DNA of 64,000 nt, taken from Microbacteriaceae bacterium. Its GTDB lineage: Bacteria; Actinomycetota; Actinomycetes; Actinomycetales; Microbacteriaceae. Location: contig JAHBTA010000001.1 of NCBI GenBank assembly GCA_019638805.1, forward strand, positions 669,408 to 733,407. Direction: 5' to 3'. Of the stretch, positions 1 through 33,315 are shown piece after piece (position 1 is the first letter of the stretch; each line of letters opens with the position of its first letter). The notes under the pieces were generated by a model that was not told where the DNA came from, searched no databases, and worked only from the letters and a program-made list of their open reading frames with translations. The translations under genes and the position numbers were made by a program.

Positions 1-392
1 CACATTTCCTTCTTCCAGGCGATGGCATCGATCTCGAGCAGGAACTCGGGGCGCGAGAGCGGCCCGATCTGCACCGTCGCGCGCGCGGGACGGTGGTCGC
101 CGAATGCCGCGCGATACGCCGTGTTCATGCCCTCGCTCAACCCGATGTCGGTCAGGTAGACGGTGGTCTTGATCACGTCGGCGAGGCTCAGGCCCGCCTG
201 CTCGAGGATGAGGGCGACGTTGCCGAGGACGCGTTCCGCCTGCTGCTCGACCCCGCCCGCCACGCTCTCTCCGGTGAACAGGTCCATCGGCACGCAGCCG
301 GACACGAAGACGAACGGCGGCGCGACGAAGGCGGGCGAGTAGGGCGGACCCGGAGGACGAGCGCCAGGAACGTGCAGGGGGCCGGGGATCAT
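1..392 (-). CDS. RidA/YjgF/YER057c-family protein (3' end outside window)
   Basis: The 130 visible residues match the RidA family: a core VSGCVPMD segment near residue 35, an LIxxAGLSLxDVIKTTVYLTD stretch in the middle, and an RPARATVQIG segment followed by a conserved LLEIDAIA near the end. RidA proteins are usually about 125-130 residues, so almost all of it is present although the stop codon is not. Family members hydrolyse reactive enamine/imine intermediates formed by PLP enzymes, or act as deaminases in catabolic operons. The ATG overlaps the stop of the upstream amidohydrolase (ATGA), so it is the last visible gene of the transporter operon. A deaminase role fits the threonine-synthase-like PLP enzyme of the same cluster, but that is inference. 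Confidence 0.88.
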   Translation of the reverse strand, partial: MIPGPLHVPGARPPGPPYSPAFVAPPFVFVSGCVPMDLFTGESVAGGVEQQAERVLGNVALILEQAGLSLADVIKTTVYLTDIGLSEGMNTAYRAAFGDHRPARATVQIGPLSRPEFLLEIDAIAWKKEM

Positions 393-1603
393 CCGCTCAC
401 CTCGAGGAGTGCGACGCCGGATCGCCAGGAGCCCCTGCACTCCCGGAGCCCGGCGGGGTCGCGGGTCAGGTCGCCGGCGAAGAGCGCCAGATCGGCTGGA
501 GCGCCCGCTCGGATGACCCCTGCGCCGGACCCGGGGTCGACCGCCGCCGCGGGCACCGACGTCGCGCGCTGCACGACCTCCTCGACCGGCACGCCGGCTT
601 CGGCCACGGCGGCGAGCCGGCCGGGGTAGTGCGCGAGCTTCCTCCCGAACTCGTCGCTGGAGAAGAACAGGTGTGCGCCGCGGGCGCGCAGATCGTGGTG
701 AAGCTGCCAGCGATTGCGGGGGGCTCCGTGCGGGGCGTCGACGATGAACGACTCCCCGTCGCGCACCGTGTAGTCGGCGAAGCTGTTCGGCAGGTCCAGG
801 TCGATGAACATCCCGCGCTCGACGATCCGGTCCGCGATGCGCGGGTCGTAGTCGATCGTGCCCGGCTCCGAACCCAGCCAATTGCAGTGGGCGAGGGTGT
901 CCACGCCGGCGTCCACACACATGGCGATCGCCGTCGTGCACGTCGCGTGAGCCACCACGTGGAGACCGAGTCCGTGTGCCTCCTCCACGAGGGCGGCCAC
1001 GTCATCGGGTCGGTACTGCGGGGCCCGGCGATTCGTGTGGGGATCCATGTCCCCGCCCGCGGCCATGAGTTTGACATGGTCGACTCCCGCTGCGTGCAGC
1101 TCTCGCACGCGGGCGCGCAGCCCCGCCTCGTCGTCGGCCGCGACTCCGATGAAGTCGGCATGGCCGCCGGTCGTCGTGATCGCGGGGCCGCCCGCGCGCA
1201 GGCGGGCAGCACCGCTCGCGGGATCGGCGACCGTCCGGGCGACCTCGACGGTGACGAGGGTCGGGCTGCCCACGTCGCGCACCGTCGTCACGCCGGCCCG
1301 ACCCGCGGCCTGGAGGGAGGCGAGGCACCAGGCTCGGAGCCCCTCGGGGCTCCTGCGACTCGCCTCCCACTCGGCCGGATCGTCATCCGTCGAATACGCG
1401 GGGTGGGCATGGGCGTCGATGAGCCCTGGGGTGAGCGTCGCCGTGCGCGCATCGACGACGCGAGCCTCTCGCGAGCGATATCCGTCGCCGACGGGCTCGA
1501 CGCCGACGATCGTTCCGTCGTGCACCACCACGGCGACGTCATGCAGGGCGGGCGAGCCCGTCCCGTCGATGAGCGTCCCGCTCTCGATCACCAGCGTTGT
1601 CAT
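389..1603 (-). CDS. Amidohydrolase family 1 (imidazolonepropionase/prolidase-like)
   Basis: A 404-residue metal-dependent hydrolase of the PF01979 type. It begins with the usual small beta domain (TLIDGTG, about residues 10-16). The metal-binding DAHAH motif follows, with His65 and His67. Further on come a VKLMAAGG segment that could supply the bridging Lys, HATC and HCNW histidines, and an SSDEF Asp. The start was placed at an ATG preceded by GGAGGAGG; the open frame extends upstream, but those codons lie inside the preceding gene. The ATG overlaps that gene's TGA. The protein probably cleaves a cyclic or linear amide of an amino acid derivative in the cytoplasm. The substrate cannot be read from sequence. 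Confidence 0.88.
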   Translation of the reverse strand: MTTLVIESGTLIDGTGSPALHDVAVVVHDGTIVGVEPVGDGYRSREARVVDARTATLTPGLIDAHAHPAYSTDDDPAEWEASRRSPEGLRAWCLASLQAAGRAGVTTVRDVGSPTLVTVEVARTVADPASGAARLRAGGPAITTTGGHADFIGVAADDEAGLRARVRELHAAGVDHVKLMAAGGDMDPHTNRRAPQYRPDDVAALVEEAHGLGLHVVAHATCTTAIAMCVDAGVDTLAHCNWLGSEPGTIDYDPRIADRIVERGMFIDLDLPNSFADYTVRDGESFIVDAPHGAPRNRWQLHHDLRARGAHLFFSSDEFGRKLAHYPGRLAAVAEAGVPVEEVVQRATSVPAAAVDPGSGAGVIRAGAPADLALFAGDLTRDPAGLRECRGSWRSGVALLEVSG

Positions 1604-2661
1604 GCCCCTCCTCCAGCCGATGCGCGGCGGGCGCTGCGCTCGACCTCGTCGAGCACGCGCATGACCGCGGCCGCGTCCTCGAAGGTCGCGAACTCGGGCA
1701 CGTGATCCGGGTCGGCGATGGCGACCGCCACGTCGTCCAGGAATCGCGCGACCGGCTGCGTGTAGGTGTCGCCCGCCCACCCCATGAGCGACGGCTCGGT
1801 CTCCGGCGCCTCGTGGACCTCGTGCGCGCCGTCGCGGCGATGACCGACGAGACGGGCGTCGTCGTCGAGGAAGAGGCTGCCGCGATCGCCGTGCACCTCG
1901 ATGCGTCGGCCGCGCTCACGCGCGAGGTTGCTGAGCACGATGTTGACGAGCACGCCGTCACCGGCCTCCAGCACGATCACCGCGGCGTCCTCCGCCGTCA
2001 CCCCCCGCTCCGTTCCCGACTCATCCGTGCGCAGCTCGTCCACGACCCGCGTGGCACCGCGGGCGGCACCGATCTCGCCGAACAGCCAGCGCACCAGGTC
2101 GACCGCGTGCGAACCGTACTCGCGCAGCACGCCGCCGCCGTTCTCGCGGGACGAGAGCCACGTCCAGGTCCGTTCGTGGAGTTCCGGAGCGGCGATCTCG
2201 AGGAGGGCGAACCGCGGCCGCCCGACGTAGCCATCGCGGAGGAGTTCGCGCAGCCGCCGGCGCACCGGGTTGTAGCGCTGCTGCAGGTCGACGGCCGCGA
2301 CCAGGCCGGAGGCCCGCGCGGCGGCCACCATCCGCCTGCCTTCCGCCGCGGTGAGGGCGAGCGGCTTCTCGCAGACGACATGCGCCCCCGCCCGCAGCGC
2401 CCCGATCGCCGGCTGCGCGTGATGGGCGGGCGGGGTGGCGATCGCGACCACGTCGAGCTCGCAGGCCGCGGGGTCGGTGAGGTAGCGCTCGCCGACCAGC
2501 ACCTCCGGCTCCGACCAGAGGTCGATGACCTCGGTGACCCGGCGCGGGTCCGGATCGTAGACGGCCGCGAGACGCCAGCGGGGGCTGCGGCTGAACGCAG
2601 CCGCCATGACCGACCCCATGACGCCCAGTCCCAGGACGCCCACTCTGAGCGGCGCGGTCAT
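1600..2661 (-). CDS. Gfo/Idh/MocA-family NAD(P)-dependent oxidoreductase
   Basis: A 353-residue protein with an N-terminal Rossmann fold (GVLGLGVMGS, residues 8-17), the family motif CEKPLALT (Glu98-Lys99-Pro100) and a C-terminal alpha/beta domain. Members oxidise or reduce sugars, inositols and related polyols, with Lys of the EKP motif in catalysis. It is coupled to the upstream permease and downstream amidohydrolase by 4-nt ATGA overlaps, so it is made together with the importer. The stretch at residues 185-230 (HERTWTWLSSRENGGG, then EYGSHAVDLVRWLFGE) holds the usual substrate-site GGG and H-D-x-x-x-W residues. The substrate is unknown; one attached to an amino acid would suit the importer type. 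Confidence 0.88.
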   Translation of the reverse strand: MTAPLRVGVLGLGVMGSVMAAAFSRSPRWRLAAVYDPDPRRVTEVIDLWSEPEVLVGERYLTDPAACELDVVAIATPPAHHAQPAIGALRAGAHVVCEKPLALTAAEGRRMVAAARASGLVAAVDLQQRYNPVRRRLRELLRDGYVGRPRFALLEIAAPELHERTWTWLSSRENGGGVLREYGSHAVDLVRWLFGEIGAARGATRVVDELRTDESGTERGVTAEDAAVIVLEAGDGVLVNIVLSNLARERGRRIEVHGDRGSLFLDDDARLVGHRRDGAHEVHEAPETEPSLMGWAGDTYTQPVARFLDDVAVAIADPDHVPEFATFEDAAAVMRVLDEVERSARRASAGGGA

Positions 2662-3374
2662 CGACGCGCCCCCCGGATCAGTCCGGCGAGCCGGGGGGAC
2701 CGGCGGTGGAGTCGGCTCTGGCCTCGGTCCAGCCGGCGTTCGACGCGGCGCAGAAGCGCGATCACGGGGAGCCCGAGCATGAGGTAGACGACCGTCACGA
2801 TCGCGAAGAGCTCGAAGTAGCGGAAGTTGAGCGCCGCGATCGCCTTGGCCGCCCCGAACAGCTCGGGGACGGCGATGAAGGAGAACAGCGAGGTGTCCTT
2901 GAAGATCGACACGAGATAGCTCGTCCAGATCGGCAGGACGTTGCGGATCGCCTGGGGAAGGATCACCCGCCACCAGGTGCGCCACCGGCTCAGCCCGAGC
3001 ACCTGGGCGGCCTCGCGCTGACCGACCTCGACCGCCAGGATCCCTGCCCGGAAGACCTCGGCGAGGTAGGGGCAGTACGCGAAGGAGATGGCGAGCACGC
3101 CTGCCACGGTCGCGGGCAGCACGATCCCGAATTGCGGCAGCACGTAGTACCAGGCGAAGAGCTGGACGAGCACGGGAATGGCGCGGCCCACGTGGATGTA
3201 GGCGTTGATGGCCGCACGGAACCACCCGCGCTCCGGGGTGATGACCGCCAGCCCGATGCCCAGCAGGGAGGCGAGGATCGCGATCGCGACCGCGAGGCCG
3301 ATGGTCGTGAGAACGGCGCTGCCGAGAATCGGCAGATAGCCCTGCAGGCGGTCGAAGAAGCCCTCGTCGATCAT
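2658..3374 (-). CDS. Polar amino acid ABC transporter permease
   Basis: A 238-residue inner-membrane permease of the HisM/GlnP family with about five hydrophobic segments. The cytoplasmic EAA loop is clear (EAAQVLGLSRWRTWWRVI, about residues 120-137), and this is where the ATPase docks. The start chosen, MIDEGFFDRL, gives the normal family length and an ATGA overlap with the upstream permease; a longer frame would run into that gene. The C-terminus is Arg-rich. With its neighbour it should form a heterodimeric channel served by the ATPase encoded divergently at 9858-10652. Confidence 0.9.
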   Translation of the reverse strand: MIDEGFFDRLQGYLPILGSAVLTTIGLAVAIAILASLLGIGLAVITPERGWFRAAINAYIHVGRAIPVLVQLFAWYYVLPQFGIVLPATVAGVLAISFAYCPYLAEVFRAGILAVEVGQREAAQVLGLSRWRTWWRVILPQAIRNVLPIWTSYLVSIFKDTSLFSFIAVPELFGAAKAIAALNFRYFELFAIVTVVYLMLGLPVIALLRRVERRLDRGQSRLHRRSPRLAGLIRGARR

Positions 3375-4030
3375 CCGACCCTCCAGCGCCTTTCGAGCCG
3401 CCGCAGCAGCATGGTGGTCGGGATGCACGTGACGCAGAAGAACAGCGCGACGATCCCGAGGGGGACGATCGAGGTTCCGGGATTGGCGCGGATGTAGCTG
3501 AGCGCCGCGAAGAGGATGTCCGGAACGGCGACCAGGGCGACCACCGGGGTGCTCCGGAACGCTTCGATGAGCGTGTTGGCGGTCGGCGGGAAGGCCACGC
3601 GGATCGCGACCGGGATGGTGATCCGCCGGACCCGGGTCGCGCCGCGCAGCCCGAGGACGGTGGCCGCTTCGAGCACACCCGTCGAGATGGAGGTGTGCGC
3701 GGCGCGGAAGACCTCGGACAGGTACGCACCGAAGTGCAGGGCGAACGTGAGCACGGCCGCCGGCCAGGCGTCGAGCACGAGGCCGAAGAGCGGAAGGACG
3801 TAGAAGACGAAGAACAGGTGGAGCAGGAGGGGGGTGGTTCGGACGATCTCGACGTACCCCACGACGATCGGAGCCAGGAACGGGATGCCCACGATGCGGA
3901 TCGCCGCAGTGACGAGCGCGACCGCGATCGCCAGCGGGAAGGCGAGGACGGTCAGCTGGACGTTCACCAGGCCCGCTGCGAACAGCACGCCGAACAGATC
4001 AGGCACGTAGGTCCATCTCTCTTTCACCAA
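3371..4030 (-). CDS. Polar amino acid ABC transporter permease
   Basis: A 219-residue HisQ/GlnP-type permease. It has an EIVRTTPLLLHLFF segment typical of the family's third membrane helix and an EAA loop (EAATVLGLRGATRVRRI). It is the partner of the next permease, with which it overlaps by 4 nt. A long inverted repeat separates it from the binding-protein gene upstream. In this family the two permeases, one lipoprotein and an ATPase dimer import polar amino acids, opines or amino-acid derivatives; specificity cannot be assigned here. Confidence 0.9.
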   Translation of the reverse strand: MVKERWTYVPDLFGVLFAAGLVNVQLTVLAFPLAIAVALVTAAIRIVGIPFLAPIVVGYVEIVRTTPLLLHLFFVFYVLPLFGLVLDAWPAAVLTFALHFGAYLSEVFRAAHTSISTGVLEAATVLGLRGATRVRRITIPVAIRVAFPPTANTLIEAFRSTPVVALVAVPDILFAALSYIRANPGTSIVPLGIVALFFCVTCIPTTMLLRRLERRWRVG

Positions 4031-4063
4031 GGTCCGGGCCGACCTGTTCGGCCGACCCGGACC
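4031..4063 (-). terminator. Hairpin between binding-protein and permease genes (attenuator-like)
   Basis: GGTCCGGG pairs perfectly with CCCGGACC, and an inner CCGA/TCGG stem closes a 5-nt loop. There is no T-run on the minus strand, so full termination is not obvious. A stem directly after the binding-protein gene commonly stabilises its mRNA or attenuates read-through, so that more binding protein than permease is made. That role is inferred. Confidence 0.55.
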
Positions 4064-4078
4064 AGCTGTGGCGGGGGC

Positions 4079-4921
4079 TCAGGACTCCGGGAAGCCGGGT
4101 CCGGGCTCCGTGATCGTCGACGGGTCGAAACCGTACTCCTCGAGGAGCCCGGCGAGGGTGCCGTCCTCCTTCGCGCCGGTGACGCACTCGTTCACGGCGT
4201 CGCGGAGGGCCTCCTTGCCCTTGGCGAAGTACCACCCCGGCGACGAGAGGCTGATGCCCTCGTAGTCCCACGGGTCCGCCACCTCGAATCCGGAGTCCGG
4301 GTTGTTCGCGACGTAGTCGCTCAGCGAGAGCTCCGCGGTCGCCGCCATCGTGATGCGGCCGGCGTTCATGTCGGCGATCATCGCGTCGAAGTTGGGGTAG
4401 ATCGACAGCTTCACCCCGAGCGCCTCGATGGCCTCCTGGTAGCTGCCGCCGGCGATGATGCCCAGCACCTCGCCCGAGGCGGCGGCATCCGACCAGCTGT
4501 GGATGCCGAGCGGGTTGCCTTCCAGCACCAGGATCTTCGAGCCGTAGCCGTAGAGCTGCTGGGTCGTGATGCCGACCTGCAGTCGCTCGTCCGTGATCGA
4601 CATGCCGGCGACCACGACGTCCCAGCGGTTCGATCCCAGGCCGGGCAGCAGGCCGTCCCAGTCGGTCGAGGAGACATCGACCTTGTCGATGCCCAGCTGG
4701 TCGGCGCAGTACTCGATGAGGTCGCCCTCGGCACCCTTCAGCTCGTCGCCGTCGAGGTAGGACCAGGGGACCTCGTTCGCGATGGCGACCCGGAGACCGT
4801 TCTCGACGTAGGGGGCCAGCGGGTCATCGGAGTCCCCGCCGGGGGCGGGGGCGGAACAGGCCGTCAGGAGGAGCCCGGCGGCGGCGATCGCGATAGCGGA
4901 TCGCGTCAGTGGTGCAGTCAT
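4079..4921 (-). CDS. ABC transporter substrate-binding lipoprotein, polar amino acid type
   Basis: A 280-residue SBP_bac_3-family protein. It has a short basic N-terminus, a hydrophobic stretch and the lipobox LLTAC with Cys22, so it should be a lipoprotein on the outer face of the membrane. The segments RVAIANEVPW, EGDLIEYCADQLG and DGLLPGLGSNRWDVVVAGMS are typical ligand-cleft elements. An Arg in the usual carboxylate-binding position of amino-acid binders is not obvious after the GMSIT segment (TDERLQ follows), so the ligand may be atypical. The ATG is preceded by GAAGGGA. A regulator-like motif lies about 30 nt upstream, and the FAH gene ends only 63 nt upstream, so this gene may be read both from its own promoter and through from the upstream operon. 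Confidence 0.9.
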   Translation of the reverse strand: MTAPLTRSAIAIAAAGLLLTACSAPAPGGDSDDPLAPYVENGLRVAIANEVPWSYLDGDELKGAEGDLIEYCADQLGIDKVDVSSTDWDGLLPGLGSNRWDVVVAGMSITDERLQVGITTQQLYGYGSKILVLEGNPLGIHSWSDAAASGEVLGIIAGGSYQEAIEALGVKLSIYPNFDAMIADMNAGRITMAATAELSLSDYVANNPDSGFEVADPWDYEGISLSSPGWYFAKGKEALRDAVNECVTGAKEDGTLAGLLEEYGFDPSTITEPGPGFPES

Positions 4922-4941
4922 ACGTTTATCCCTTCGGAAAA

Positions 4942-4966
4942 ATGCTGCGTGTAGCATGTACAATGC
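4942..4966. promoter_or_regulatory. Putative GntR operator upstream of the binding-protein gene
   Basis: The site holds TGTAGCATGT at 4950-4959, which matches 9 of 10 bases of the motif at 9785 and 12134. It is also part of an imperfect inverted repeat, ATGCTGC-GT-GTAGCAT, and is followed by ATGC. It sits in the only gap between the two minus-strand blocks of the cluster. The GntR regulator at 11472-12095 is the obvious candidate to bind it (inference). Confidence 0.5.
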
Positions 4967-4984
4967 AGGTGAACGAGGCGGTTG

Positions 4985-5836
4985 TCAAGCCTTCTCGGCC
5001 ACGATCCGGTTCCGGATCGCGCCGATGCCCTCGATCTCGACCTCGACGACATCGCCGGGCTCGAGGAACGGAACATCCGGGTGCCCGTAGGACACCCCCG
5101 CCGGCGTGCCCGTGCTGATCACGTCACCCGGGTTCAGGCGGACCTGATGGCTCAGATGCCACACCAGGAACCGGGGTCCGAACTGCATGTCGGCCGTGGT
5201 CCCGTCCTGGCGGACGACGCCGTTCACGCGAGTCCGCAGGCTCAGAGCGTCGACGTCGTCGAGCTCGTCGGGGGTCACCAGCCGAGGCCCGAGCGGGTTG
5301 AAGGTCGGGGTCGCCTTGCTGCGATCCCACCCCGTCGGCGGGTCGATCTGCCAGTCGCGGACCGACACGTCATGACTGATCGTGTAACCGGCGATGCAGG
5401 TGTCCGCGTCCGCGGGAGAGCCCAGCCGATGCGCGGGAGCCCCGATGACGATCGCGAGCTCGACCTCCCAGTCGAGGGTGGACTCACCGGCCGGACGCAC
5501 CACATCGTCGTTCGGCCCGACGATCGTCTCGGGGGCCTTGAGGAAGTAGATCGGCTCGTCCGGGATCGGCAAGGACGTCTCGCGCGCATGGTCGGTGAAG
5601 TTCAGGCCGACCGAGATCAGCTTGCCGACGCGCGGCACGGGCGGCCCGAGACGCGCGGCGAGCGCCGCGTCGGGGGCGCGCTCGAGCCGGCCGGCGGCGA
5701 GCTCCGCCGCGAGCTCGCGTGATCCCGCCGGTGAGATCGTCTGCAGCGGATCTCGATCGCCCAGCCCGAAGAGCCGGTCCTCGTGCCGCAGGTAGAGCAC
5801 CTCGGCTCCGGCGCGACCGCGTCGCTCGAAGATCAT
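4985..5836 (-). CDS. Fumarylacetoacetate hydrolase (FAH)-family protein
   Basis: A 283-residue FAH-fold protein. Metal-binding positions are visible around DWEVELAIVIG (Glu-x-Glu), preceded by VGLNFTDHA and KAPETIVGPNDD. The C-terminal part, GDVISTGTPAGVSYG then GDVVEVEIEGIG, is the family hallmark. Members hydrolyse C-C bonds of diketo acids, or act as dehydratases or lyases on 2-keto-3-deoxy acids. It is the last gene of the block 9768 to 4985 and overlaps the upstream lyase by ATGA. With the adjacent DapA-like lyase and hydroxyacid dehydrogenase it probably performs the terminal steps of a keto-acid pathway. Which reaction is not decidable. Confidence 0.9.
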   Translation of the reverse strand: MIFERRGRAGAEVLYLRHEDRLFGLGDRDPLQTISPAGSRELAAELAAGRLERAPDAALAARLGPPVPRVGKLISVGLNFTDHARETSLPIPDEPIYFLKAPETIVGPNDDVVRPAGESTLDWEVELAIVIGAPAHRLGSPADADTCIAGYTISHDVSVRDWQIDPPTGWDRSKATPTFNPLGPRLVTPDELDDVDALSLRTRVNGVVRQDGTTADMQFGPRFLVWHLSHQVRLNPGDVISTGTPAGVSYGHPDVPFLEPGDVVEVEIEGIGAIRNRIVAEKA

Positions 5837-6732
5837 GCCGCCTGCTCCAGCCGTTCTGCGCCGATCTCGTCCAGCAGGGCGCGCAGCCGGTCGAGCCCGA
5901 CGCCCTCGAGAGTCGGGGTGGGATGCGGGGGCAGCCCCGACGGGATCCCCAGCAGCGTGACGGCCTGCTGCACCACCGCCACGAATGCCGCCTCGTCGAA
6001 CATCCGGAGGCGGTGCACCTTGGCCTGAACCGCCCGAGCCGTCACCAGGTCGCCGCCGGTGGCGGCGCTCATGAGCTCCGAGAGCAGCGACGGGATCACG
6101 TTCGCGGTCGACGCGACCGCGCCGTCGCATCCATATGCCAGCGCGGCGAGGACGAGGCTGTCGTGACCGACCAGCACCCGGAACGAATCCGTCCGGAGCG
6201 CGAGGTAGGCGCACAGCGAGAGCATCGAGCCGCTGCTGTCCTTCAGGCCGGCGACGTTGGGGTGGCCGGCCAGCTCCGCGGCGAGCGCCACCGGGATCGT
6301 CCGGCCGGTGCGCGCGGGATGGTTGTAGAGGACGACCGGCACGGGGGACTCCTCGGACAGCTCGACGAGGTATGCGCGCAGTGCCGCGTCGTCGACACCG
6401 GTTCCCAGCGGCGGCGTCGCCACCACGTGGGACGCGCCCTCTGCCGCGGCGACGCGGGCCCGGGCGAGCGAGGCCTTCGTCGATCCGCTCGTCACCCCGC
6501 ACAGGACAGCCCGGCCGCCCGCCGCCGCTCCCGCCGCCGAGACGAGGCCCGCCACCTGCCGGTCGTCCAGCAGCCAGCCCTGCCCCTGGCCGCCGGCCAC
6601 GAAGTGCCCCTGCACACCGCGAGCCGTCAGAGCCGCGATCAGGCGCCCGAAGGCCTCCTCGTCCACCGTGCCGTCCGGACGGCGCGGTGTCGCGACGGCG
6701 GCGACCAGGCCGCCCAGAACCGGCACGCTCAT
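5833..6732 (-). CDS. Dihydrodipicolinate synthase/N-acetylneuraminate lyase-family protein
   Basis: A 299-residue (beta/alpha)8 class I aldolase. The Schiff-base lysine is Lys164 in GLKDSSG and the proton-relay tyrosine is Tyr136 in YNHPART, both in normal positions. The GG-x-G-x-GW segment near residues 47-53 replaces the usual GTTGE loop that binds the pyruvate carboxylate, so the substrate pocket is unlike true DapA. It is embedded in a catabolic operon with ATGA overlaps on both sides, so lysine synthesis is unlikely. It probably cleaves a 2-keto-3-deoxy acid to pyruvate and an aldehyde, or dehydrates one. The neighbouring hydroxyacid dehydrogenase could reduce a resulting semialdehyde. 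Confidence 0.87.
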   Translation of the reverse strand: MSVPVLGGLVAAVATPRRPDGTVDEEAFGRLIAALTARGVQGHFVAGGQGQGWLLDDRQVAGLVSAAGAAAGGRAVLCGVTSGSTKASLARARVAAAEGASHVVATPPLGTGVDDAALRAYLVELSEESPVPVVLYNHPARTGRTIPVALAAELAGHPNVAGLKDSSGSMLSLCAYLALRTDSFRVLVGHDSLVLAALAYGCDGAVASTANVIPSLLSELMSAATGGDLVTARAVQAKVHRLRMFDEAAFVAVVQQAVTLLGIPSGLPPHPTPTLEGVGLDRLRALLDEIGAERLEQAA

Positions 6733-7601
6733 CCTCGGCCCGTCTCGTAGAGGGTCCAGAGCCCGGCGTGGTCGAGGTCCCCGCCTCCGTCCTCAACGAG
6801 CCGCGCGAAGAGGTCGCGGGCGGTCCGGGTCATCGGCGCCCGATCGCCTCCCAGCGTCTCGGCCGCGTCCGTCGCGATCCGGAGGTCCTTGAGCTGGAGC
6901 GCCGATCGGAAGCCCGGCGCGAACGCCCCGTCGAGCATGCGGGCGCCGTGGTTCTCCAGGATCCGGCTGCCGGCGAAGCCTCCCAGGAGCGCCTCGCGCA
7001 CCCCTGCGGGGTCCACGCCCAGAGCGCCGGCGAGACTCAGGGCCTCGGCGACCAGCGCGATCGTCCCTCCGACGATCATCTGGTTGGCGGCCTTGGCGAC
7101 CTGGCCGGCGCCCACGTCCCCGACCCGGGTGATGCTCGAGCCCAGCGCGGAGAGGACCGGCATCGCCTGCTCCACGTCCGCCTCGGTTCCCCCCACCATG
7201 ATGGTGAGGCTCCCGGACTCGGCGCCGCGCACGCCTCCGGAGACCGGGGCGTCGATGAATCGCACGCCCTGACGTGCCAGTCGCGTCGAGATCTCGCGCG
7301 CGGTCGCCGGCGCGATCGTGCTCATGTCGATGAGCAGCTGGGGCGCCTGCAGGGCCTCACCCAGGCCGCCGTCTCCCCAGAGCGCGTCGAGGACGTCCGG
7401 ACTGTCGGGCAGCATGAGGATCACCAGATCGGCCCCGGAGGCGAGCGCCGGGAGGTCCGCTGCCACGTCGTGGCCGTCCTCTCGCGCCGCGGAGCGGCCG
7501 GCATCCGACCGGGCGTACGCGATCACCTCGTGCCCCGCCGCTCGCAGGTTGAGCGCCATCGGGCGACCCATGTTCCCCAGCCCCGCAAAACCGATCCTCA
7601 T
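6729..7601 (-). CDS. NAD(P)-dependent beta-hydroxyacid dehydrogenase (3-HIBADH/GarR-like)
   Basis: A 290-residue protein with the dinucleotide motif GLGNMGRPMA (residues 7-16), the substrate motif DAPVSGGVRGAESGSLTI (117-134) and the catalytic lysine Lys170 in GQVAKAANQM. The C-terminal all-alpha domain contains the KDLRIATDAA helix. The family includes 3-hydroxyisobutyrate dehydrogenase and tartronate semialdehyde reductase. Its place directly upstream of a DapA-type lyase recalls the aldolase-reductase pair of aldarate breakdown (GarL/GarR), but identity of the aldehyde is unknown. A good ribosome site, GGAGGCAGGTC, precedes the ATG, which overlaps the upstream stop. Confidence 0.88.
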   Translation of the reverse strand: MRIGFAGLGNMGRPMALNLRAAGHEVIAYARSDAGRSAAREDGHDVAADLPALASGADLVILMLPDSPDVLDALWGDGGLGEALQAPQLLIDMSTIAPATAREISTRLARQGVRFIDAPVSGGVRGAESGSLTIMVGGTEADVEQAMPVLSALGSSITRVGDVGAGQVAKAANQMIVGGTIALVAEALSLAGALGVDPAGVREALLGGFAGSRILENHGARMLDGAFAPGFRSALQLKDLRIATDAAETLGGDRAPMTRTARDLFARLVEDGGGDLDHAGLWTLYETGRG

Positions 7602-8788
7602 GACCTGCCTCCTCGACTCGATGGTTCGAACTCCAGTGACGCCGGCCACCGATCGCCTGCACCGGTCGCGATGACGACGACCTCCGGGCGAGCCGGGATG
7701 CGGTGCTCGACTCTCGCGAGCGCGGCGCGCAGACCGGCCAGTGCTGCGGCGCCCGCCGGCTCGACGAAGACCCCCAGCGCTCCCATCTCGCCCATGGCCC
7801 GACGCAGCTCGTCGTCGGAGACCGTCACGGCGGCGCCGCCAATCGAGCGCAGCTCGTGCAGCGCATGATCGCCCGCGCGCTCGTCCCGCAGCGAGTGGGC
7901 GATGCTCTCCCCGAGCGCCGTGGGCCGGACGGACTCCGCGTCGTCGGCGAGCGCGACCACCAGCGAGTCGCAGGTCTCGGGCTGAACCGCGACGACCGCC
8001 GGGACGCGTTCGGCGAGGTCCGCCTCGGCGAGCGAGCGGAAGCCCTTGACGACGCCCGCGATGCCGTCGCCCCCGCAGGCGGGCATGACCACGACGTCGG
8101 GAACCCTGCCGAGTTCCGCGACGATCTCCACCGCGATCGACTTGTACCCCTCCATGCCGTACGGGTTGGCCAGCGGGCGCGGCGCGTTCCGTCCGACGTA
8201 GTCCCACCCCAGGTCCACCAGCTCCCGGACGAGGCCCGATCGATCGCCCCACGGCACGATCACCGCCTCTCCTCCATACACCTCGATCACCCGGGGCGCC
8301 GTGCCCGGCACCTCCTCGGGGAGGAAGGCTCGCGCGACCAGTCCGCGCCGACGTGCGTACCAGACGGCGGCGACCGCCTGATTGCCCGTGCTCGAGGTGA
8401 CGAGACGCTCTCCGCCGAGCCCGGCGATCGCCGCTGTCGCGACGGCGTTGAGCCGGTCCTTGAAGCTCCCGGTCGGGTTGCGCGTCTCGTCCTTGACCCA
8501 GACGGCGTTCGCGCCGACGGCGCCGGCCGCATAGGGCGCGGAACGCAGCGGGGTGCCCCCCTCGTCGAAGGACTCCTCCCGCGCGGCCTCGGGGAATGCC
8601 ACCGCCTGCGCGCCCGCCGCCCCACGCGCCACCTGCTCGCGGAACCAGTCCCGGGGCACGACGATCGACAGTGCCGAGGCGCACCCCGGGCATCCGCGCC
8701 AGTACGCCCCGAACGCCAGCTCCCGGTCGCATCCCGTGCACCGCAGCCGTTCGCCGTCGCCGAACAGAGAGGAGGGCCCGCCCCTCAT
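7598..8788 (-). CDS. Threonine synthase-like fold-type II PLP enzyme with zinc ribbon
   Basis: A 396-residue protein. The N-terminus carries a zinc ribbon of the pattern CxxC-x12-CxxC (Cys17, 20, 33, 36), seen in some threonine synthases and carboxylate ligases. The PLP lysine is Lys110 in NPTGSFKDR, with an SSTGNQA phosphate/substrate loop and a glycine-rich CGGDGIAG phosphate-binding loop near the middle. Within a catabolic operon between a lactonase-like and a dehydrogenase gene it is more likely a beta- or gamma-elimination or replacement enzyme on an amino acid than a biosynthetic threonine synthase. That, and a partnership with the RidA-like protein, is inference. It is coupled by ATGA overlaps on both sides. 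Confidence 0.85.
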   Translation of the reverse strand: MRGGPSSLFGDGERLRCTGCDRELAFGAYWRGCPGCASALSIVVPRDWFREQVARGAAGAQAVAFPEAAREESFDEGGTPLRSAPYAAGAVGANAVWVKDETRNPTGSFKDRLNAVATAAIAGLGGERLVTSSTGNQAVAAVWYARRRGLVARAFLPEEVPGTAPRVIEVYGGEAVIVPWGDRSGLVRELVDLGWDYVGRNAPRPLANPYGMEGYKSIAVEIVAELGRVPDVVVMPACGGDGIAGVVKGFRSLAEADLAERVPAVVAVQPETCDSLVVALADDAESVRPTALGESIAHSLRDERAGDHALHELRSIGGAAVTVSDDELRRAMGEMGALGVFVEPAGAAALAGLRAALARVEHRIPARPEVVVIATGAGDRWPASLEFEPSSRGGRS

Positions 8789-9768
8789 GAGCTCGCCAGC
8801 GCGGCACGGGGGTTGTCGACGACCAGCCGTTCGATCTCGGCCTCCTCGAGGCCGATCGCGAGCAGCTCCTCGGCGAATCCGCCCAGCACGTAGGAGTAGC
8901 CGGGTCCGCCGAAGGTGGCGAGGTGGTCCTTCCGGCACACGTCCTGGGAGAGGAGCACGTGATCGCCGTAGCCGGCTCTCACGAGGCTCAGGACGTATCG
9001 CGCACGGCGTTCGATCTCGTAGCGGTTCTCGCCGCGGACGGTGTCGAACTGCACGTAGACGCCGCGCTCGGCCAGCGCGAGATGGTACTCCGGGATGTTG
9101 ATCGAGTCGCAGTGGCCGATGATGACGCGCCGTGGGTCGGCGCCCTCCGCCACGAGCACATCGAGCTGGGCGAGACCCACCGGCCAGCGGGAGGCATGCG
9201 TCGAGATGACGACCCCGGTCGCGAGCTGAGCGCGAGCGGCCGCGCGGAAGCTCCGCTCCTCCGCAGCCGACAGGTACCACCGATCGGAGCCGATCTCGCC
9301 GATCACCCCGGCGCGGACCCCGGTTCCCGGGAAGCCCTCGGTGAGATCGCCGACCATGCGCTCGGCGAGGAGGTCCGGACCGAATCGATCGAAGTCGTCG
9401 AGGTAGGGGTCCCGGTAGTGCCCCGTGCCGAGGACGATGTTCACCCCCGTCGTCCGCGCCAGCTCCCGCAGCTCGATGACGTTGTTGTGCGCACGGGTGC
9501 GAAGCCCGGCGGGCTGAGGGTGCGGTTCGCCGCGGAACAGACCCAGCGGATCCGGACTCGCGCCGACCGTGAGCTCGGCCGAGGTCAGATCGACGATCGT
9601 GCCGCCGCCAGCGGCCCGGAACGCCTCCAGCTCCCGCTGAGCGAGGTCCGCATCGTTGAGCAGGCCGTTGCCCCGGAACTCCGGAAGCAGGTTGATGAAG
9701 ACGTGCTCGTGCATGACGGTCCGCCCGAGATCGGCGGCGTCGACAGGCCCCGAAGCTGTCTGGATCAC
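8785..9768 (-). CDS. Phosphotriesterase-family metal hydrolase (probable lactonase/amidase)
   Basis: A 327-residue TIM-barrel hydrolase with the HEH metal motif (His20, His22 in TVMHEHVF), His191 (ISTHAS), His219 (IIGHCDS) and Asp276 (LLSQDV). The bridging position holds Glu158 (GVIGEIGS) where phosphotriesterases use a carboxylated Lys. The E. coli phosphotriesterase homology protein also uses Glu, so the site can still be binuclear. A GTG start was chosen because GGAGGA lies 5 nt upstream; an ATG 24 nt further out has no such site and would cover the putative operator. As first gene of its block it probably opens a ring or ester in the early pathway. Confidence 0.85.
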   Translation of the reverse strand: MIQTASGPVDAADLGRTVMHEHVFINLLPEFRGNGLLNDADLAQRELEAFRAAGGGTIVDLTSAELTVGASPDPLGLFRGEPHPQPAGLRTRAHNNVIELRELARTTGVNIVLGTGHYRDPYLDDFDRFGPDLLAERMVGDLTEGFPGTGVRAGVIGEIGSDRWYLSAAEERSFRAAARAQLATGVVISTHASRWPVGLAQLDVLVAEGADPRRVIIGHCDSINIPEYHLALAERGVYVQFDTVRGENRYEIERRARYVLSLVRAGYGDHVLLSQDVCRKDHLATFGGPGYSYVLGGFAEELLAIGLEEAEIERLVVDNPRAALASS

Positions 9769-9784
9769 GCTTCCTCCATTGACG

Positions 9785-9794
9785 TGCAGCATGT
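9785..9794. promoter_or_regulatory. Putative GntR operator in the divergent control region
   Basis: TGCAGCATGT lies between the divergently transcribed lactonase and ATPase genes. The 14-bp window starting here reads TGCNNCATGNNGCA, an exact palindrome at the named positions. The same 10-mer occurs upstream of the GntR gene, and a one-mismatch copy lies upstream of the binding-protein gene. A single site could control both transcription directions (inference). Confidence 0.5.
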
Positions 9795-9857
9795 GGCATT
9801 TTTGTGTAGTCTAGCCGGGCTGCAATGGCTTGCCGCAACCTCGAGAGAAGAGGCATC

Positions 9858-10652
9858 GTGACCCGGTCCGCATCCAGCCACGAGCTCGTGGTCAGCTTCC
9901 GCGACGTCCAGAAGTCCTACGGCGACGTGGTCGCTCTCGACGGCGTCAACCTGAACGTCACGCGGAGCGAGGTGGTAGCGCTCATCGGATCGAGCGGCTC
10001 GGGCAAGACGACCGTCCTGCGCAGCCTCATCGGGCTGACCGACATCACCGGCGGCTGCATCGAGGTGCACGGCGAAGTGGTCGCCGACGCACGGGAGGGA
10101 TCGCCGCCGGTCAACGAACGGCGAGCGGCCGAGATCCGGCGCACCCGGTTGGGCATGGTCTTCCAGTCCTTCAATCTCTTCCCCCACCGGACGGTGCTCC
10201 AGAACGTCATCGAGGGGCCGGTGTACGCCGGCGGCATGCCGCGCGACGAGGCTGTCGCCCGCGCTCGCGCCCTGCTCGAGCGCGTCGACATGCTGAGCAA
10301 GCAGGACCGGTACCCGTCGGAGCTCTCCGGCGGCCAGCAGCAGCGCGTGGCGATCGCCCGGGCCCTCGCGATGCAGCCCGATGTCGTGCTCTTCGACGAG
10401 GTCACCTCCGCCCTGGATCCCGAGCTCACCGGCGAGGTGCTCGCGGTCATGAACGACCTGGCGAGCGAGGGCCAGACCATGCTCGTGGTGACGCACGAGA
10501 TCGGCTTCGCGCGACGGGTCGCGACCCGCGTGGTCTACATGGACCACGGGAAGATCGTCGAGGAGGGCACGCCCGCCGCCGTCATCGACGCCCCTGCCAA
10601 GGATCGCACCAAGAGGTTCCTCAGCTCGGTCCTCCGATTCGGCACGGACTGA
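9858..10652 (+). CDS. Polar amino acid ABC transporter ATP-binding protein
   Basis: A 264-residue ATPase of the GlnQ/HisP type. It shows Walker [10 protein letters not shown] (residues 44-52), a Q-loop [11 protein letters not shown], the signature LSGGQQQR, Walker [15 protein letters not shown] and the switch His in VVTHE. The GTG start has GAGAAGAGG just upstream, and about 10 residues precede the first beta strand, which is normal; an ATG 33 nt upstream is the alternative. It should energise the two permeases at 2658-4030, although it is encoded on the other strand 5.8 kb away. An amidohydrolase gene follows 4 nt after the stop. Confidence 0.93.
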
Positions 10653-10656
10653 TCGG

Positions 10657-11475
10657 ATGATCGACGCCGCCGTCCATGTCTGGTCCTCCGACACCGCGGC
10701 GTATCCCTGGCCTCCCGATGCCGCGGCGGCCCCGCCGACCTCGCCCGCGGGGCCCGAAGCGCTCTTCGCGGATCTGAGCACGGCCGGCGTCACCGGCGCG
10801 GTCGCCGTGCAGTCCAGCGCGTACGGCGACAACCACGCCTTCCTGCTCGACACGGTCCGCGCCTCGGGGGGCGCTCTCGCGGCGGTCGGGCTGGTGCGGA
10901 GTCGCGGCATGGATGCGGCGGACCAGGCCCGTGACCTCGTCCGCTCCGGGTGCGCCGGGCTGCGCGTCGTGGTGTCAGGAGATCCGGCCTGGCTCGAGAG
11001 CCCCGCCGCGGACGCGGTGTGGAGCCTCGCGGAGGGGCACCGTGTCCCGGTGGGGTTCCTGGCGCGTCCCGACGAGCTGCCGGACGTGGCCGCCCTCGCC
11101 GCCCGCAGACCGGACCTGCGCGTGGTGGTGGACCACCTCGGGCTCATCGAGCCGGCGGCGCTGGACAGCAGCCGCCCCGCACTGGAGCTCCTGGCGCGTT
11201 CTCCGAACACCTCGATCAAGGTGTCGGCGCTTCGCGCCCTGGCGGCGGCCCCGCCGCCCTTCGCCGCGTTGCGCCCCCTGCTGCTGACCGTGCGCGACCT
11301 CTTCGGCTACGAGCGCATGGCGTACGGCACCGACTGGCCCTACGCCGTCGAGCAGGACTCCTACCCGGCCACCCTGGAGGCCCTCGACGCGGTCTTCGAC
11401 TGGGACCCCGCGGAGCGCGAGCGGGTGACGGAGGGCACCGCGCGTTCGCTCTGGTGGCGGGAGCACCGGAGCTAG
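10657..11475 (+). CDS. Amidohydrolase-2 family protein (lactonase-like)
   Basis: A 272-residue TIM-barrel hydrolase of the PF04909 type. It has a variant N-terminal metal motif, DAAVHVW, in place of D-x-H-x-H. It also has VVVDHLG in the middle and the late YGTDWPY motif carrying the metal/catalytic Asp. The family includes 2-pyrone-4,6-dicarboxylate hydrolase, 4-sulfomuconolactonase and sugar lactonases. It lies 4 nt behind the ATPase gene and is convergent with the GntR gene; the two stop codons overlap. It belongs to the same regulon as the minus-strand blocks and probably opens a lactone. The loss of the first His of the HxH pair may mean one metal or none. Confidence 0.8.
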   Translation: MIDAAVHVWSSDTAAYPWPPDAAAAPPTSPAGPEALFADLSTAGVTGAVAVQSSAYGDNHAFLLDTVRASGGALAAVGLVRSRGMDAADQARDLVRSGCAGLRVVVSGDPAWLESPAADAVWSLAEGHRVPVGFLARPDELPDVAALAARRPDLRVVVDHLGLIEPAALDSSRPALELLARSPNTSIKVSALRALAAAPPPFAALRPLLLTVRDLFGYERMAYGTDWPYAVEQDSYPATLEALDAVFDWDPAERERVTEGTARSLWWREHRS

Positions 11476-12095
11476 ACGGCCGCCCAGGTGCGCCGGCTCA
11501 GGTCCAGGTGCTGCGCCACGAGGTTGCCGACCGCGTCGACGTCTCCGACCTCGATGGCCTCGAGCAGCCTGCGGTGCTCCTCCGCGGTGCGGGCGTCCTC
11601 ATGCCCCGGCGGGAGCAGCTGCGCGTCCATCAGCTCGGCCAGCAGCTGCGTGATCTTGGCATTCCCGTATTGAGCCACGAGATAGAGGTGGAACTGCTTG
11701 TTGACCTCGAGGTACTCCACGGCGTCTCCGTCGACCGAGAGGCGCTCGAGGCGACTGGCGAGCTCGCGTGCGGTATCGAGCTGCTCGTGAGTGAGCTGGC
11801 CCGCTATGCCCCGCAGGGCGGTGCGCTCGAGAAGCTCCCGAACCTCCAGATAGTCGCGCACCGCGGCGGGCGAGAGGCGCACGACCTCGAAGCCGACTCC
11901 CGCCGAGACGTGGATGAGCCCCTTGCTCTCCAGTTCGAGGAGCGCCTCCCGCACCGGGGTCCGTGACGCCCCGTAGCGTTCGGCCACATCTCCGGCGTTG
12001 TAGATCTCGCCTGGCGCGAGACGACCCGCCAGGATCTCGGTCCGGAGGTTGGCGACGATCTGGTCCTTCAGGGAGACGCGGGCGACCATGTTCAC
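11472..12095 (-). CDS. GntR-family transcriptional regulator (FCD/FadR-type)
   Basis: A 207-residue regulator. Its N-terminal winged helix-turn-helix includes LRTEILAGRLAPGEIYN and ERYGASRTPVREALLELESKGLI. An all-helical FCD effector domain follows (KQFHLYLVAQYGNAK; His and acidic residues suited to metal or carboxylate binding). The start was set at GTG because AGGAAG lies 9 nt upstream; an ATG two codons downstream is also possible. A TGCAGCATGT motif lies about 40 nt upstream, as it does at the two other control regions of the cluster, which suggests autoregulation and control of the whole block. FCD regulators usually sense a pathway organic acid and repress in its absence. Confidence 0.9.
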   Translation of the reverse strand: MNMVARVSLKDQIVANLRTEILAGRLAPGEIYNAGDVAERYGASRTPVREALLELESKGLIHVSAGVGFEVVRLSPAAVRDYLEVRELLERTALRGIAGQLTHEQLDTARELASRLERLSVDGDAVEYLEVNKQFHLYLVAQYGNAKITQLLAELMDAQLLPPGHEDARTAEEHRRLLEAIEVGDVDAVGNLVAQHLDLSRRTWAAV

Positions 12096-12133
12096 GAGAA
12101 CTCGCTTCCTGTCTGCGCCGCCGTAACGGTGCA

Positions 12134-12143
12134 TGCAGCATGT
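12134..12143. promoter_or_regulatory. Putative autoregulatory GntR operator
   Basis: TGCAGCATGT is identical to the copy at 9785-9794. It overlaps a second GCAT, giving GCAT-GCA-GCAT, and CATGCAGCATG is a perfect 11-bp palindrome. It lies upstream of the GntR gene's ribosome site, where it could act as autoregulatory site. Confidence 0.5.
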
Positions 12144-12183
12144 TATCGGTGCAGACGGCAGGCTGCATCCAGCGCGCTTCCGC

Positions 12184-13266: not shown

Positions 13267-13320
13267 ATCGTCAGCCTATTGCGTGCCGCAGCCCCTCCCG
13301 CCCGTCGCGCGGCCGTGGGG

Positions 13321-14472
<1,152 letters not shown>

Positions 14473-14492
14473 TCACGGAGGGAGCCGTGACG
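14473..14492. repeat. Short palindromic repeat, copy 2
   Basis: This is the exact second copy of the 20-base TCACGG...CCGTGACG unit in the same orientation, ending 16 nt before the lysC stop codon position. It could slow or end transcription from lysC, or be a REP-like element (inference). Confidence 0.7.
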
Positions 14493-14508
14493 CAGGAGTG
14501 GGGGCGGG

Positions 14509-15777: not shown

Positions 15778-15822
15778 GGGAACCCAGTCTAGGGTTCGCC
15801 GGGGCCGCCCCCGCGCGCGCCC

Positions 15823-15881
15823 GTGCACGTTTGCTGTCGGGCGAGCACGTTCCAGCGTGCTCGTTCGACGCGAACGTGCAC
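15823..15881. repeat. Compound palindromic (REP/MITE-like) element, copy 1
   Basis: The 59-bp unit begins GTGCACGTTT and ends GCGAACGTGCAC, so its ends are inverted. Inside is a hairpin with arms CGAGCACG and CGTGCTCG. A clearly related unit of 58 bp lies at 60538-60595 in the same orientation, about 75% identical by eye over an ungapped or one-gap alignment. It lies in the gap between the HAD phosphatase and lysC genes. Confidence 0.7.
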
Positions 15882-15887
15882 CCTGGG

Positions 15888-17269: not shown

Positions 17270-17271
17270 GT

Positions 17272-19287: not shown

Positions 19288-19291
19288 CCCC

Positions 19292-31616: not shown

Positions 31617-31668
31617 CCGCAGTCGCCTTTCCTTGGTTTCTTGATCGAGATCGGTTGCCGGGTGACAC

Positions 31669-31701: not shown

Positions 31702-31709
31702 ACCCCGCG

Positions 31710-33245: not shown

Positions 33246-33315
33246 TGCTTGACTCCTTTGTCCTCTTTTGGCCTGCAGATGCCGGGCCCGCGGGCCACGC
33301 GCCGGCAGGTGGTTA

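What the first reader, a model, noticed from the sequence alone, without database searches (positions are those of the whole stretch)
1..12143. GntR-controlled cluster of unknown substrate combining an amino-acid importer, PLP chemistry, lactonases and keto-acid enzymes
Twelve enzyme and transport genes plus a GntR gene stand together. The set is a polar-amino-acid ABC importer, RidA, amidohydrolase 1, amidohydrolase 2, Gfo/Idh, FAH, DapA-like, GarR-like dehydrogenase, a zinc-ribbon threonine-synthase-like PLP enzyme and a phosphotriesterase-like hydrolase. I know of no described pathway with this combination. A plausible logic is: import of an amino-acid conjugate, ring or amide opening, beta-elimination with RidA clearing the enamine, then cleavage of a keto-deoxy acid by DapA/FAH and reduction of the semialdehyde.
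Basis: partly seen in the sequence, partly recalled or inferred. Interest (0 to 1): 0.8.

Follow-up and report, generated by a model that had tools for sequence, protein, structure and literature searches.

The report
Operon for breaking down amino-acid conjugates
A bacterium, likely an actinobacterium, carries thirteen tightly packed genes, plus a divergent gene pair and a regulator gene, that are predicted to import an unknown amino-acid derivative, likely strip off its acyl group, remove its nitrogen and cleave the remaining keto acid into food, and would do so with a threonine-synthase look-alike that lacks an arginine found at that position in the threonine synthases it was aligned with; the substrate is untested.

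Summary
Window 1-12143 holds 13 enzyme/transport genes plus GntR, not 12. The gene run also continues past the left edge into an M24 metallopeptidase and a D-2-hydroxyacid dehydrogenase. It looks like one unit: 10 of 12 junctions are 4-bp overlaps at the starts I chose. PTE (82%), PLP enzyme (67%) and M24 (77%) orthologues are each listed with 6 contigs, longest 730,512 bases, so likely one assembly. A 12-mer recurs in the three leaders compared, 3 of 5 exact copies in the genome.
Two labels change. The phosphotriesterase-like protein has the Glu-bridged metal site of PHP and PTER, an N-acetyl-amino-acid hydrolase, not the Lys of a lactonase chain. The 'threonine synthase' has Gly where the synthases have Arg.
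Best reading: uptake and deacylation of an N-acyl beta-hydroxy-amino acid, PLP-plus-RidA deamination, cleavage of a 2-keto-3-deoxy acid, as in the ong pathway. A family member's cluster pairs PTE, FAH and RidA with a glucosaminate-ammonia-lyase-like enzyme and a deacetylase-like amidohydrolase, which points to an amino-sugar acid. Substrate unknown. New variant of a known kind.

The parts
8785..9768 (-). PTE: phosphotriesterase-related metal hydrolase of the Glu-bridged PHP/PTER type; predicted N-acyl-amino-acid amidase (inferred). Start GTG 9768 behind GGAGG; a longer frame starts at 9792
   Evidence: Pfam PF02126; His28, His30, Glu166, His199, His227, Asp284 in the 335-aa frame; Glu aligned with PHP, Lys in a lactonase-type chain; start
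7598..8788 (-). PLP: fold-type II, threonine-synthase-like enzyme with N-terminal cysteine pairs; predicted dehydratase/ammonia-lyase (inferred)
   Evidence: PALP 198 bits; Lys107 and NPYGMEGYK; model pLDDT 90.3, nearest solved folds threonine synthase then TdcB
6729..7601 (-). GarR/HIBADH-like semialdehyde reductase
   Evidence: TIGR01505 267 bits, cut-off 340.75; Lys170
5833..6732 (-). DapA-family lyase; Lys164 and Tyr136 kept, substrate loop reads GGQGQ
   Evidence: PF00701 143 bits; alignment with four solved chains
4985..5836 (-). FAH-family diketo-acid hydrolase or decarboxylase
   Evidence: PF01557 226.5 bits; best NCBIfam NF053535 211 bits, cut-off 500; Glu122, Glu124, Asp154
4079..4921 (-). 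Extracellular solute-binding protein of the amino-acid ABC importer, nearest EhuB
   Evidence: PF00497; EhuB model 119 bits, cut-off 191; best PDB match 2q88
3371..4030 (-). ABC importer permease (EhuC-like)
2658..3374 (-). ABC importer permease (EhuD-like)
1600..2661 (-). Gfo/Idh/MocA oxidoreductase, IolG-like at superfamily level
   Evidence: PF01408; TIGR04380 99 bits, cut-off 355; Lys95, His181
389..1603 (-). AH1: amidohydrolase 1 of the carboxypeptidase/prolidase-like type
   Evidence: PF01979; NF051886 138 bits, cut-off 500; PDB 3be7, 2qs8, 3mtw; His64, His66, Lys177, His218, His238, Asp316
1..392 (-). RidA-family imine deaminase (last stop base lies just left of the window)
   Evidence: PF01042; Arg in PARATV
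1..3 (-). Start codon (GTG) of the M24 metallopeptidase gene, which continues left of the window (L004:18219-19403), followed by a D-2-hydroxyacid dehydrogenase gene (L004:17275-18222)
   Evidence: Asp253, Asp264, His328, Glu357, Glu370
9825..10652 (+). ABC importer ATPase (EhuA-like), divergent from the operon
   Evidence: TIGR03005 305 bits, cut-off 345
10657..11475 (+). AH2: Amidohydrolase 2, fuconolactonase-like at superfamily level; Ala5 where a metal His is usual (usual residue recalled)
   Evidence: PF04909 127 bits; NF052480 67 bits, cut-off 400
11472..12134 (-). GntR-family (FCD) regulator; an ATG at 12089 is the likelier start (inferred)
   Evidence: PF00392 and PF07729
12184..13266 (-). 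FMN-dependent 2-hydroxyacid oxidase/dehydrogenase; possible member
   Evidence: PF01070 355 bits
4948..4959 (-). Candidate operator ACATGCTACACG before the binding-protein gene
9783..9794 (-). Candidate operator ACATGCTGCACG between PTE and the ATPase gene
12132..12143 (-). Candidate operator ACATGCTGCATG in the GntR leader

Best explanation
This is a run of 13 closely packed leftward genes with a divergent ATPase-amidohydrolase pair and a GntR gene that likely forms one catabolic regulon, which would import an N-acylated or peptide-linked beta-hydroxy-alpha-amino acid (best guess a 2-amino-2-deoxy sugar acid), would strip the acyl or aminoacyl group, would eliminate the amino group with a threonine-synthase-like PLP enzyme helped by RidA, and would cleave the resulting 2-keto-3-deoxy acid. 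Steps, all inferred from family and motif: (1) uptake by the Ehu-like ABC importer; (2) amide hydrolysis by the PTER-type PTE protein, amidohydrolase 1 and/or the M24 peptidase; (3) loss of water and ammonia on the PLP enzyme, with RidA hydrolysing the enamine/imine; (4) either retro-aldol cleavage by the DapA-like lyase, or oxidation by Gfo/Idh or D-2-hydroxyacid dehydrogenase followed by hydrolysis in the FAH enzyme; (5) reduction of a semialdehyde by the GarR-like enzyme. The GntR protein likely acts through the shared 12-mer. Shown directly: gene content, overlaps, motifs, and orthologues of three members listed with one same-sized source.
For: Unit: 10 of 12 junctions are 4-bp overlaps. 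Conservation: PTE 82%, PLP 67%, M24 77% orthologues each listed with 6 contigs, longest 730,512 (identities). Control: ACATGCTRCAYG occurs 5 times exactly in 3.14 Mb (reversed-pattern control 1), 3 of them in these leaders; a three-way match this good arose in 3 of 400 random window triplets and 0 of 400 shuffles. Amide chemistry: PTE's best PDB match is 3k2g, also PTER's top structural match in PMC11374699, where PTER hydrolyses N-acetyltaurine and, more slowly, several N-acetyl amino acids, with metal residues such as H26, H28, E169 (passages); the window protein has His28, His30, Glu166. Glu is at that motif in 119 of the 120 listed relatives, 110 by pattern and 9 by eye, one not read. In two family members with PTE near 50% identity, amino-acid ABC importer genes are close by (L022, L023). 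Elimination: the PLP enzyme keeps Lys107 but has Gly for the Arg of three solved synthases. Keto-acid link: in family member L027 one strand carries ABC importer genes, Gfo/Idh, a deacetylase-like amidohydrolase (347 bits, cut-off 371), a DgaE-like PLP ammonia-lyase (160 bits, cut-off 385), RidA, PTE, FAH (44% to the window's) and an FMN enzyme; in L026 FAH follows PTE directly. Precedent: ong pathway, with RidA essential in vivo (PMC9537276).
Against: No step is tied to a substrate. No cluster protein reaches an equivalog cut-off in the rows shown (25 of 189 rows for the ATPase, 25 of 32 for the PLP enzyme). The DapA-like loop reads GGQGQ where four solved chains read GSNGE, GTTGL, GTTGE and GSGGE, so pyruvate chemistry may not hold. 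No sugar kinase is among the 17 proteins scanned, and the genome has no LPMO_10 match, so a chitin-oxidation source is not indicated. Three or four amide hydrolases are more than the route needs. PTE-FAH adjacency was seen in 2 of 9 PTE loci only, at 34-41% PTE identity. The FMN enzyme of L027 is 70% identical to another window gene (51808-53034) and 31% to the one beside GntR. The PLP orthologue is missing from the other held genomes sampled.
Confidence: 0.42

Rival explanations
1. The cluster is a regulon of two separate tasks: peptide or N-acyl-amino-acid scavenging (importer, M24, AH1, PTE, PLP, RidA) and sugar-acid or hydroxyacid breakdown (Gfo/Idh, FAH, DapA, GarR, D-2-HADH, AH2) that share a regulator but not a substrate.
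For: The binding-protein gene in the middle has its own candidate operator; several amide hydrolases look redundant for one substrate; PLP-M24 pairs occur elsewhere mostly without relatives of the keto-acid enzymes; 5 of 9 PTE loci show neither FAH nor importer permease or binding-protein relatives close by.
Against: Hydrolases and keto-acid enzymes are interleaved and overlap in one run; PTE, FAH, RidA and a DgaE-like PLP enzyme stand together in L027.
Confidence: 0.23
2. It degrades an ectoine-like cyclic amidine: Ehu-like uptake, ring opening by the M24 protein, dehydration of a hydroxylated ring by the PLP enzyme as proposed for EutB.
For: All four importer parts score best against Ehu models; the binding protein matches EhuB best in the PDB; M24 and a dehydratase-like PLP enzyme also feature in ectoine use (PMC5924519, passages).
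Against: M24 scores 64 and 34 bits against ectoine hydrolase models with cut-offs 575 and 613; PLP scores 47 and 32 against EutB models with cut-off 413; no cyclodeaminase or diaminobutyrate enzyme among the 17 proteins scanned; the review states that ectoine consumers in its data set are restricted to Proteobacteria.
Confidence: 0.1
3. It is a non-phosphorylating 6-deoxy-sugar or sugar-acid route (fucose/rhamnose type: dehydrogenase, lactonase, FAH diketo hydrolase, hydroxyacid oxidase), with the PLP enzyme and importer as extras.
For: FAH scores best with 2,4-didehydro-3-deoxy-L-rhamnonate hydrolase, AH2 with L-fuconolactonase; an FMN 2-hydroxyacid oxidase gene is adjacent.
Against: Scores 211 of 500 and 67 of 400 bits; AH2 lacks one usual metal His; no enolase- or IlvD-type dehydratase among the 17 proteins; importer is of the amino-acid type.
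Confidence: 0.12

Closest known systems
ong pathway for N-acetylglucosaminate (GlcNAc1A) in Pseudoalteromonas prydzensis (PMC9537276)
   Same: Order of chemistry: uptake, amide hydrolysis, PLP deamination to a 2-keto-3-deoxy acid, RidA protein needed in vivo, repressor gene in the cluster
   Different: OngC is fold-type III, here fold-type II; SSS symporter versus ABC importer; KDG kinase versus DapA/FAH; RpiR versus GntR; extra dehydrogenases and peptidase here
[quoted passage not shown]
   Same: A DgaE-like enzyme takes the PLP place beside PTE, FAH and RidA in family member L027
   Different: The window enzyme is PALP, a different Pfam family from the SelA/DgaE type
PTER, mammalian N-acetyltaurine hydrolase (PMC11374699, PMC13311154; passages)
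   Same: PTE family with His-x-His and Glu metal residues; same nearest solved structure 3k2g
   Different: Bacterial, in an import gene run; substrate unknown
Ehu ectoine importer of Sinorhizobium (EhuB 2q88)
   Same: All four parts match Ehu models best
   Different: Below every Ehu cut-off; Ser where EhuB has Phe in AGLF (that this Phe lines the pocket is recalled)
Threonine synthase
   Same: Fold and PLP lysine
   Different: NPYGMEGYK in place of NPYRIEGQK and alike; the genome has a separate synthase-like gene at C3:345195 reading NNDRIEGQK

Membership tests
ong pathway | Fold-type III PLP deaminase OngC | tested here: not met
   Window enzyme is PALP, nearest fold-type II structures; OngC fold-type III per section 13
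ong pathway | RidA-family protein in the cluster | tested here: met
ong pathway | KDG kinase in the cluster | tested here: not met
   No kinase among 17 proteins scanned
ong pathway | LPMO supplying oxidised chitin | tested here: not met
   No PF03067 match in the own genome, 98.2% complete
ong pathway | Deacetylase acting on N-acetylglucosaminate | not testable with these tools
   PTE and AH1 are candidate amidases only
Ectoine/hydroxyectoine use (Ehu-Eut/Doe) | EhuABCD importer | tested here: inconclusive
   Best matches in all four parts, all below cut-off
Ectoine/hydroxyectoine use (Ehu-Eut/Doe) | Ectoine hydrolase EutD/DoeA | tested here: not met
   34 and 64 bits against cut-offs 613 and 575
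Threonine synthase | Arg of the RxEGQK motif (said, from recall, to bind the substrate phosphate) | tested here: not met
   GMEGYK against RIEGQK/RLEGQK in three solved chains
Phosphotriesterase-like lactonase | Bridging Lys (carboxylated; recalled) | tested here: not met
   Glu166 where the 4ha0 chain has Lys
PHP/PTER-type PTE | His-x-His plus bridging Glu | tested here: met
PHP/PTER-type PTE | N-acyl-amino-acid hydrolysis | not testable with these tools
   needs purified protein
Non-phosphorylating fucose/rhamnose route | Diketo-deoxy-acid hydrolase and fuconolactonase equivalogs | tested here: not met
   211 of 500 and 67 of 400 bits

The most novel reading that the evidence does not exclude
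A second, independently assembled route for 2-amino-2-deoxy sugar acids (or other N-acylated hydroxy-amino acids): a PTER-type bacterial deacylase, a fold-type II threonine-synthase-derived ammonia-lyase with RidA, and a non-phosphorylating DapA/FAH cleavage end, fed by an amino-acid ABC importer and controlled by GntR through ACATGCTRCAYG. The PLP slot is swappable: a relative fills it with a DgaE-like lyase. It would give first functions to a clade of 'threonine synthases' that are not, and to bacterial PTER relatives.
Probability: 0.28. Interest if true: 0.73.

Novelty: new variant of a known kind. Interest (0 to 1): 0.54.

Why it matters
If right, it shows that the deacylate, deaminate with PLP and RidA, cleave the keto-deoxy acid scheme known from marine chitin oxidation was built again elsewhere with different enzymes, and that three PLP families (fold-type III OngC, DgaE-like, and this PALP clade) fill the same slot. 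It would assign functions to two groups with doubtful names: proteins called 'threonine synthase' that lack the synthase Arg, and bacterial phosphotriesterase-related proteins. Each step can be assayed with single purified enzymes.

Tried and rejected
Considered and set aside: hydroxyproline or Xaa-Pro peptide use (DapA-family and M24 present, but no epimerase, amino-acid oxidase or semialdehyde dehydrogenase among the 17 proteins; family roles recalled). AHL or other lactone breakdown (PTE has Glu, not Lys). Mimosine and opine use (recalled gene sets do not match).

M24-PLP pairing as orthology: of 24 PLP loci examined, 12 have an M24 relative within 255 bp: 11 of 11 that carry NPxGx[ED]GYK and 1 of 13 that do not. 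Seven of 24 also carry an AH1 relative. But 8 of the 11 are one genus, and trees put neither the window PLP nor the window M24 inside the linked groups, so this is a recurrent pairing, not proof of shared function. Three over-long or misread rows were left out of the PLP tree (L058_0, L068_0, L069_0).

The class-wide profile search (180 of 394 genomes at 1e-60) was too broad: it gathers many PALP subfamilies and says nothing on this cluster's spread. The PTE-guided search of genome contigs gave 3 loci; in the two whose genes I printed (L007, L009) and in L022 the PTE gene sits with hydantoinase-A/B-like genes, named by eye. Inverted-repeat search gave nothing at the PTE or SBP leaders and one imperfect 16-nt pair at the GntR leader that overlaps the 12-mer; the 12-mer was spotted by eye and then tested. 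Literature searches: no paper in the rows listed describes this gene combination; the library holds open-licence papers only. The two other exact copies of the 12-mer fall inside frames (window 33017-33028; C7), so were not counted as regulon members.

For that I raised the best explanation from 0.37 to 0.42 and the novel case from 0.25 to 0.28, and lowered the two-task rival from 0.27 to 0.23. My first wording '0 Lys among 120 relatives' was also mended: the pattern could not have caught a lactonase-type Lys, so the ten unmatched rows were printed.

Full report
What is there. The window is bases 669,408-733,407 of contig 1 of a 3.14-Mb genome, 98.2% complete. The family is probably Microbacteriaceae: a PTE relative (82%) is named Pseudolysinimonas (lineage); the genome itself is unnamed. 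Leftward order: PTE, PLP enzyme, GarR-like, DapA-like, FAH, binding protein, permease, permease, Gfo/Idh, amidohydrolase 1, RidA, M24 peptidase, D-2-hydroxyacid dehydrogenase; the last two lie beyond the window edge. Ten of the 12 junctions are 4-bp overlaps, ATGA or GTGA, with the starts I chose. Divergent are the ABC ATPase and amidohydrolase 2; then GntR and an FMN 2-hydroxyacid oxidase gene, leftward.

Is it more than chance? Orthologues of PTE (P0243, 82%), PLP (P0003, 67%) and M24 (P0122, 77%) are each listed with 6 contigs, the longest 730,512 bases (identities). That they share one contig is inferred from that equal length. They are genes 1, 2 and 12 of the run. Beyond that the PLP enzyme is rare: only the own genome of 297 in the order (E 1e-40) and of 396 in the phylum (E 1e-50); with P0003 as query 3 of 398 in the family, the own genome and two 36-38% relatives (E 1e-45). 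These samples overlap, and only the top 4-6 first-look candidates per genome were scored. The genus-mate, 77% complete, gave only a synthase-like gene (31%).

Control. A 12-mer, ACATGCTRCAYG, lies on the minus strand at 4948-4959, 9783-9794 and 12132-12143, in the leaders of the binding protein, of PTE/ATPase and of GntR. The PTE start is better placed at GTG 9768 behind GGAGG, so the site is in its leader. It was read by eye from these leaders, then counted: five exact copies in the genome, one in the reversed control. With one mismatch allowed, the window holds 4 against 0.63 expected. Three leaders sharing 10 of 12 columns occurred in 3 of 400 random window triplets and 0 of 400 shuffles. 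GntR binding is inferred.

What the parts say. PTE: the alignment puts GEIGSD on AEIGTS of E. coli PHP and on KLASSK of a lactonase-type chain, so the bridging residue is Glu166. PTER, whose top structural match in the paper is also 3K2G, hydrolyses N-acetyltaurine and more slowly several N-acetyl amino acids (PMC11374699, passages; PMC13311154, passages). The PLP enzyme keeps Lys107 and four N-terminal cysteines, but reads NPYGMEGYK where three solved threonine synthases read NPYRIEGQK, NPYRLEGQK and NPVRIEGQK; the genome's own synthase-like gene reads NNDRIEGQK. That this Arg holds the substrate phosphate is recalled. The motif NPxGx[ED]GYK is in 32 of 49 family sequences gathered, and in 21 of the 22 rows of the window's own group. 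The model (pLDDT 90.3) is nearest threonine synthase, then threonine deaminase TdcB. AH1 is nearest solved carboxypeptidases and prolidases. The DapA-like protein keeps Lys164 and Tyr136, but its loop is GGQGQ. AH2 has Ala5 where a metal His is usual (usual residue recalled). M24 keeps five metal-ligand positions and is far below ectoine-hydrolase cut-offs.

A telling relative. In family member L027 (G083:C2) one strand carries, in order, ABC importer genes, Gfo/Idh, an Amidohydro_1 protein near a deacetylase model (347 bits, cut-off 371), a zinc alcohol dehydrogenase, a PLP enzyme of the DgaE type (160 bits of 385; [quoted passage not shown] The FAH is 44% identical to the window's, the PTE 34%. 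In L026 FAH follows PTE (41% each). So in 2 of 9 PTE loci read, PTE stands next to FAH, and once with RidA and an amino-sugar-acid-lyase-like enzyme. Two others have amino-acid ABC genes close by (L022, L023). The L027 FMN enzyme is closer to window 51808-53034 (70%) than to the gene beside GntR (31%).

How it most likely works. The best precedent I found is the ong pathway: deacetylation of N-acetylglucosaminate, PLP deamination to 2-keto-3-deoxygluconate, a RidA protein essential in vivo, then a kinase (PMC9537276, outline, passages and section 13). The window has counterparts for uptake, amide hydrolysis, PLP elimination and RidA, and replaces the kinase end by DapA/FAH and dehydrogenases. 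It is not a member: the PLP fold type, kinase, transporter, regulator and LPMO tests fail. It works like it, by inference. An Arthrobacter plasmid has a distant relative of the PLP enzyme (31%) overlapping a KDPG-type aldolase gene, with a sugar kinase, Gfo/Idh and RidA nearby, which fits a keto-deoxy-acid product, though that enzyme lacks the window motif.

Context against and beside. Two PTE relatives at about 40% (L024, L025) and three at 29-33% (L028-L030) show neither FAH nor an importer permease or binding-protein relative close by. PLP-M24 neighbours recur in 12 of 24 loci, but the trees do not place the window proteins inside those groups. The same genome holds a second cluster with a 73.6% identical RidA, another ABC importer, Gfo/Idh, an amidohydrolase, a class V aminotransferase-like gene and a KdgD-like gene over its subfamily cut-off.

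Verdict. A coherent gene run, likely one operon and likely conserved in a second assembly, of unknown substrate. Interest is moderate: the scheme is known, the parts are new to it, and each step is testable.

Noticed in passing
L005 (G000:C4:200001-220000), about 10869-19784: A second cluster in the same genome with a RidA 73.6% identical to the operon's, an ABC importer, Gfo/Idh, TRZ/ATZ-like amidohydrolase, class V aminotransferase-like gene and a divergent KdgD-like gene (397 bits, subfamily cut-off 278).
   Followed up: partly
window about 22000-45500: A further catabolic-looking stretch: oligopeptide-type ABC genes, a zinc alcohol dehydrogenase (30579-31703) 51% identical to the one in the L027 cluster, an enolase-superfamily-like gene (36793-38037), a RhaM-like gene (37988-38317), a DapA-like gene (39390-40301) and a second FAH gene near 42604-43245; most named by eye.
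   Followed up: no
L057, L059-L066, L080, L081, L054: A threonine-synthase-like gene and an M24 peptidase gene sit side by side in 11 loci of four genera and on an Agrobacterium plasmid; by eye some stand with luciferase-like flavin genes and oligopeptide ABC genes (L066, L080, L081).
   Followed up: partly
L007, L009, L022: Relatives of the PTE protein stand beside hydantoinase-A/B-like genes, with ABC importer or thioesterase-like genes near some of them (named by eye).
   Followed up: no
L055 (Arthrobacter sp. zg-Y820 plasmid) 1-11531: A PLP enzyme of the same superfamily overlaps a KDPG-type aldolase gene, with sugar kinase, Gfo/Idh, RidA, creatininase-family, M20 and aldehyde dehydrogenase genes around.
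   Followed up: partly
window 33017-33028: A fourth exact copy of the 12-mer in the window lies inside the frame 31710-33824, a binding-protein-like gene; probably chance.
   Followed up: partly
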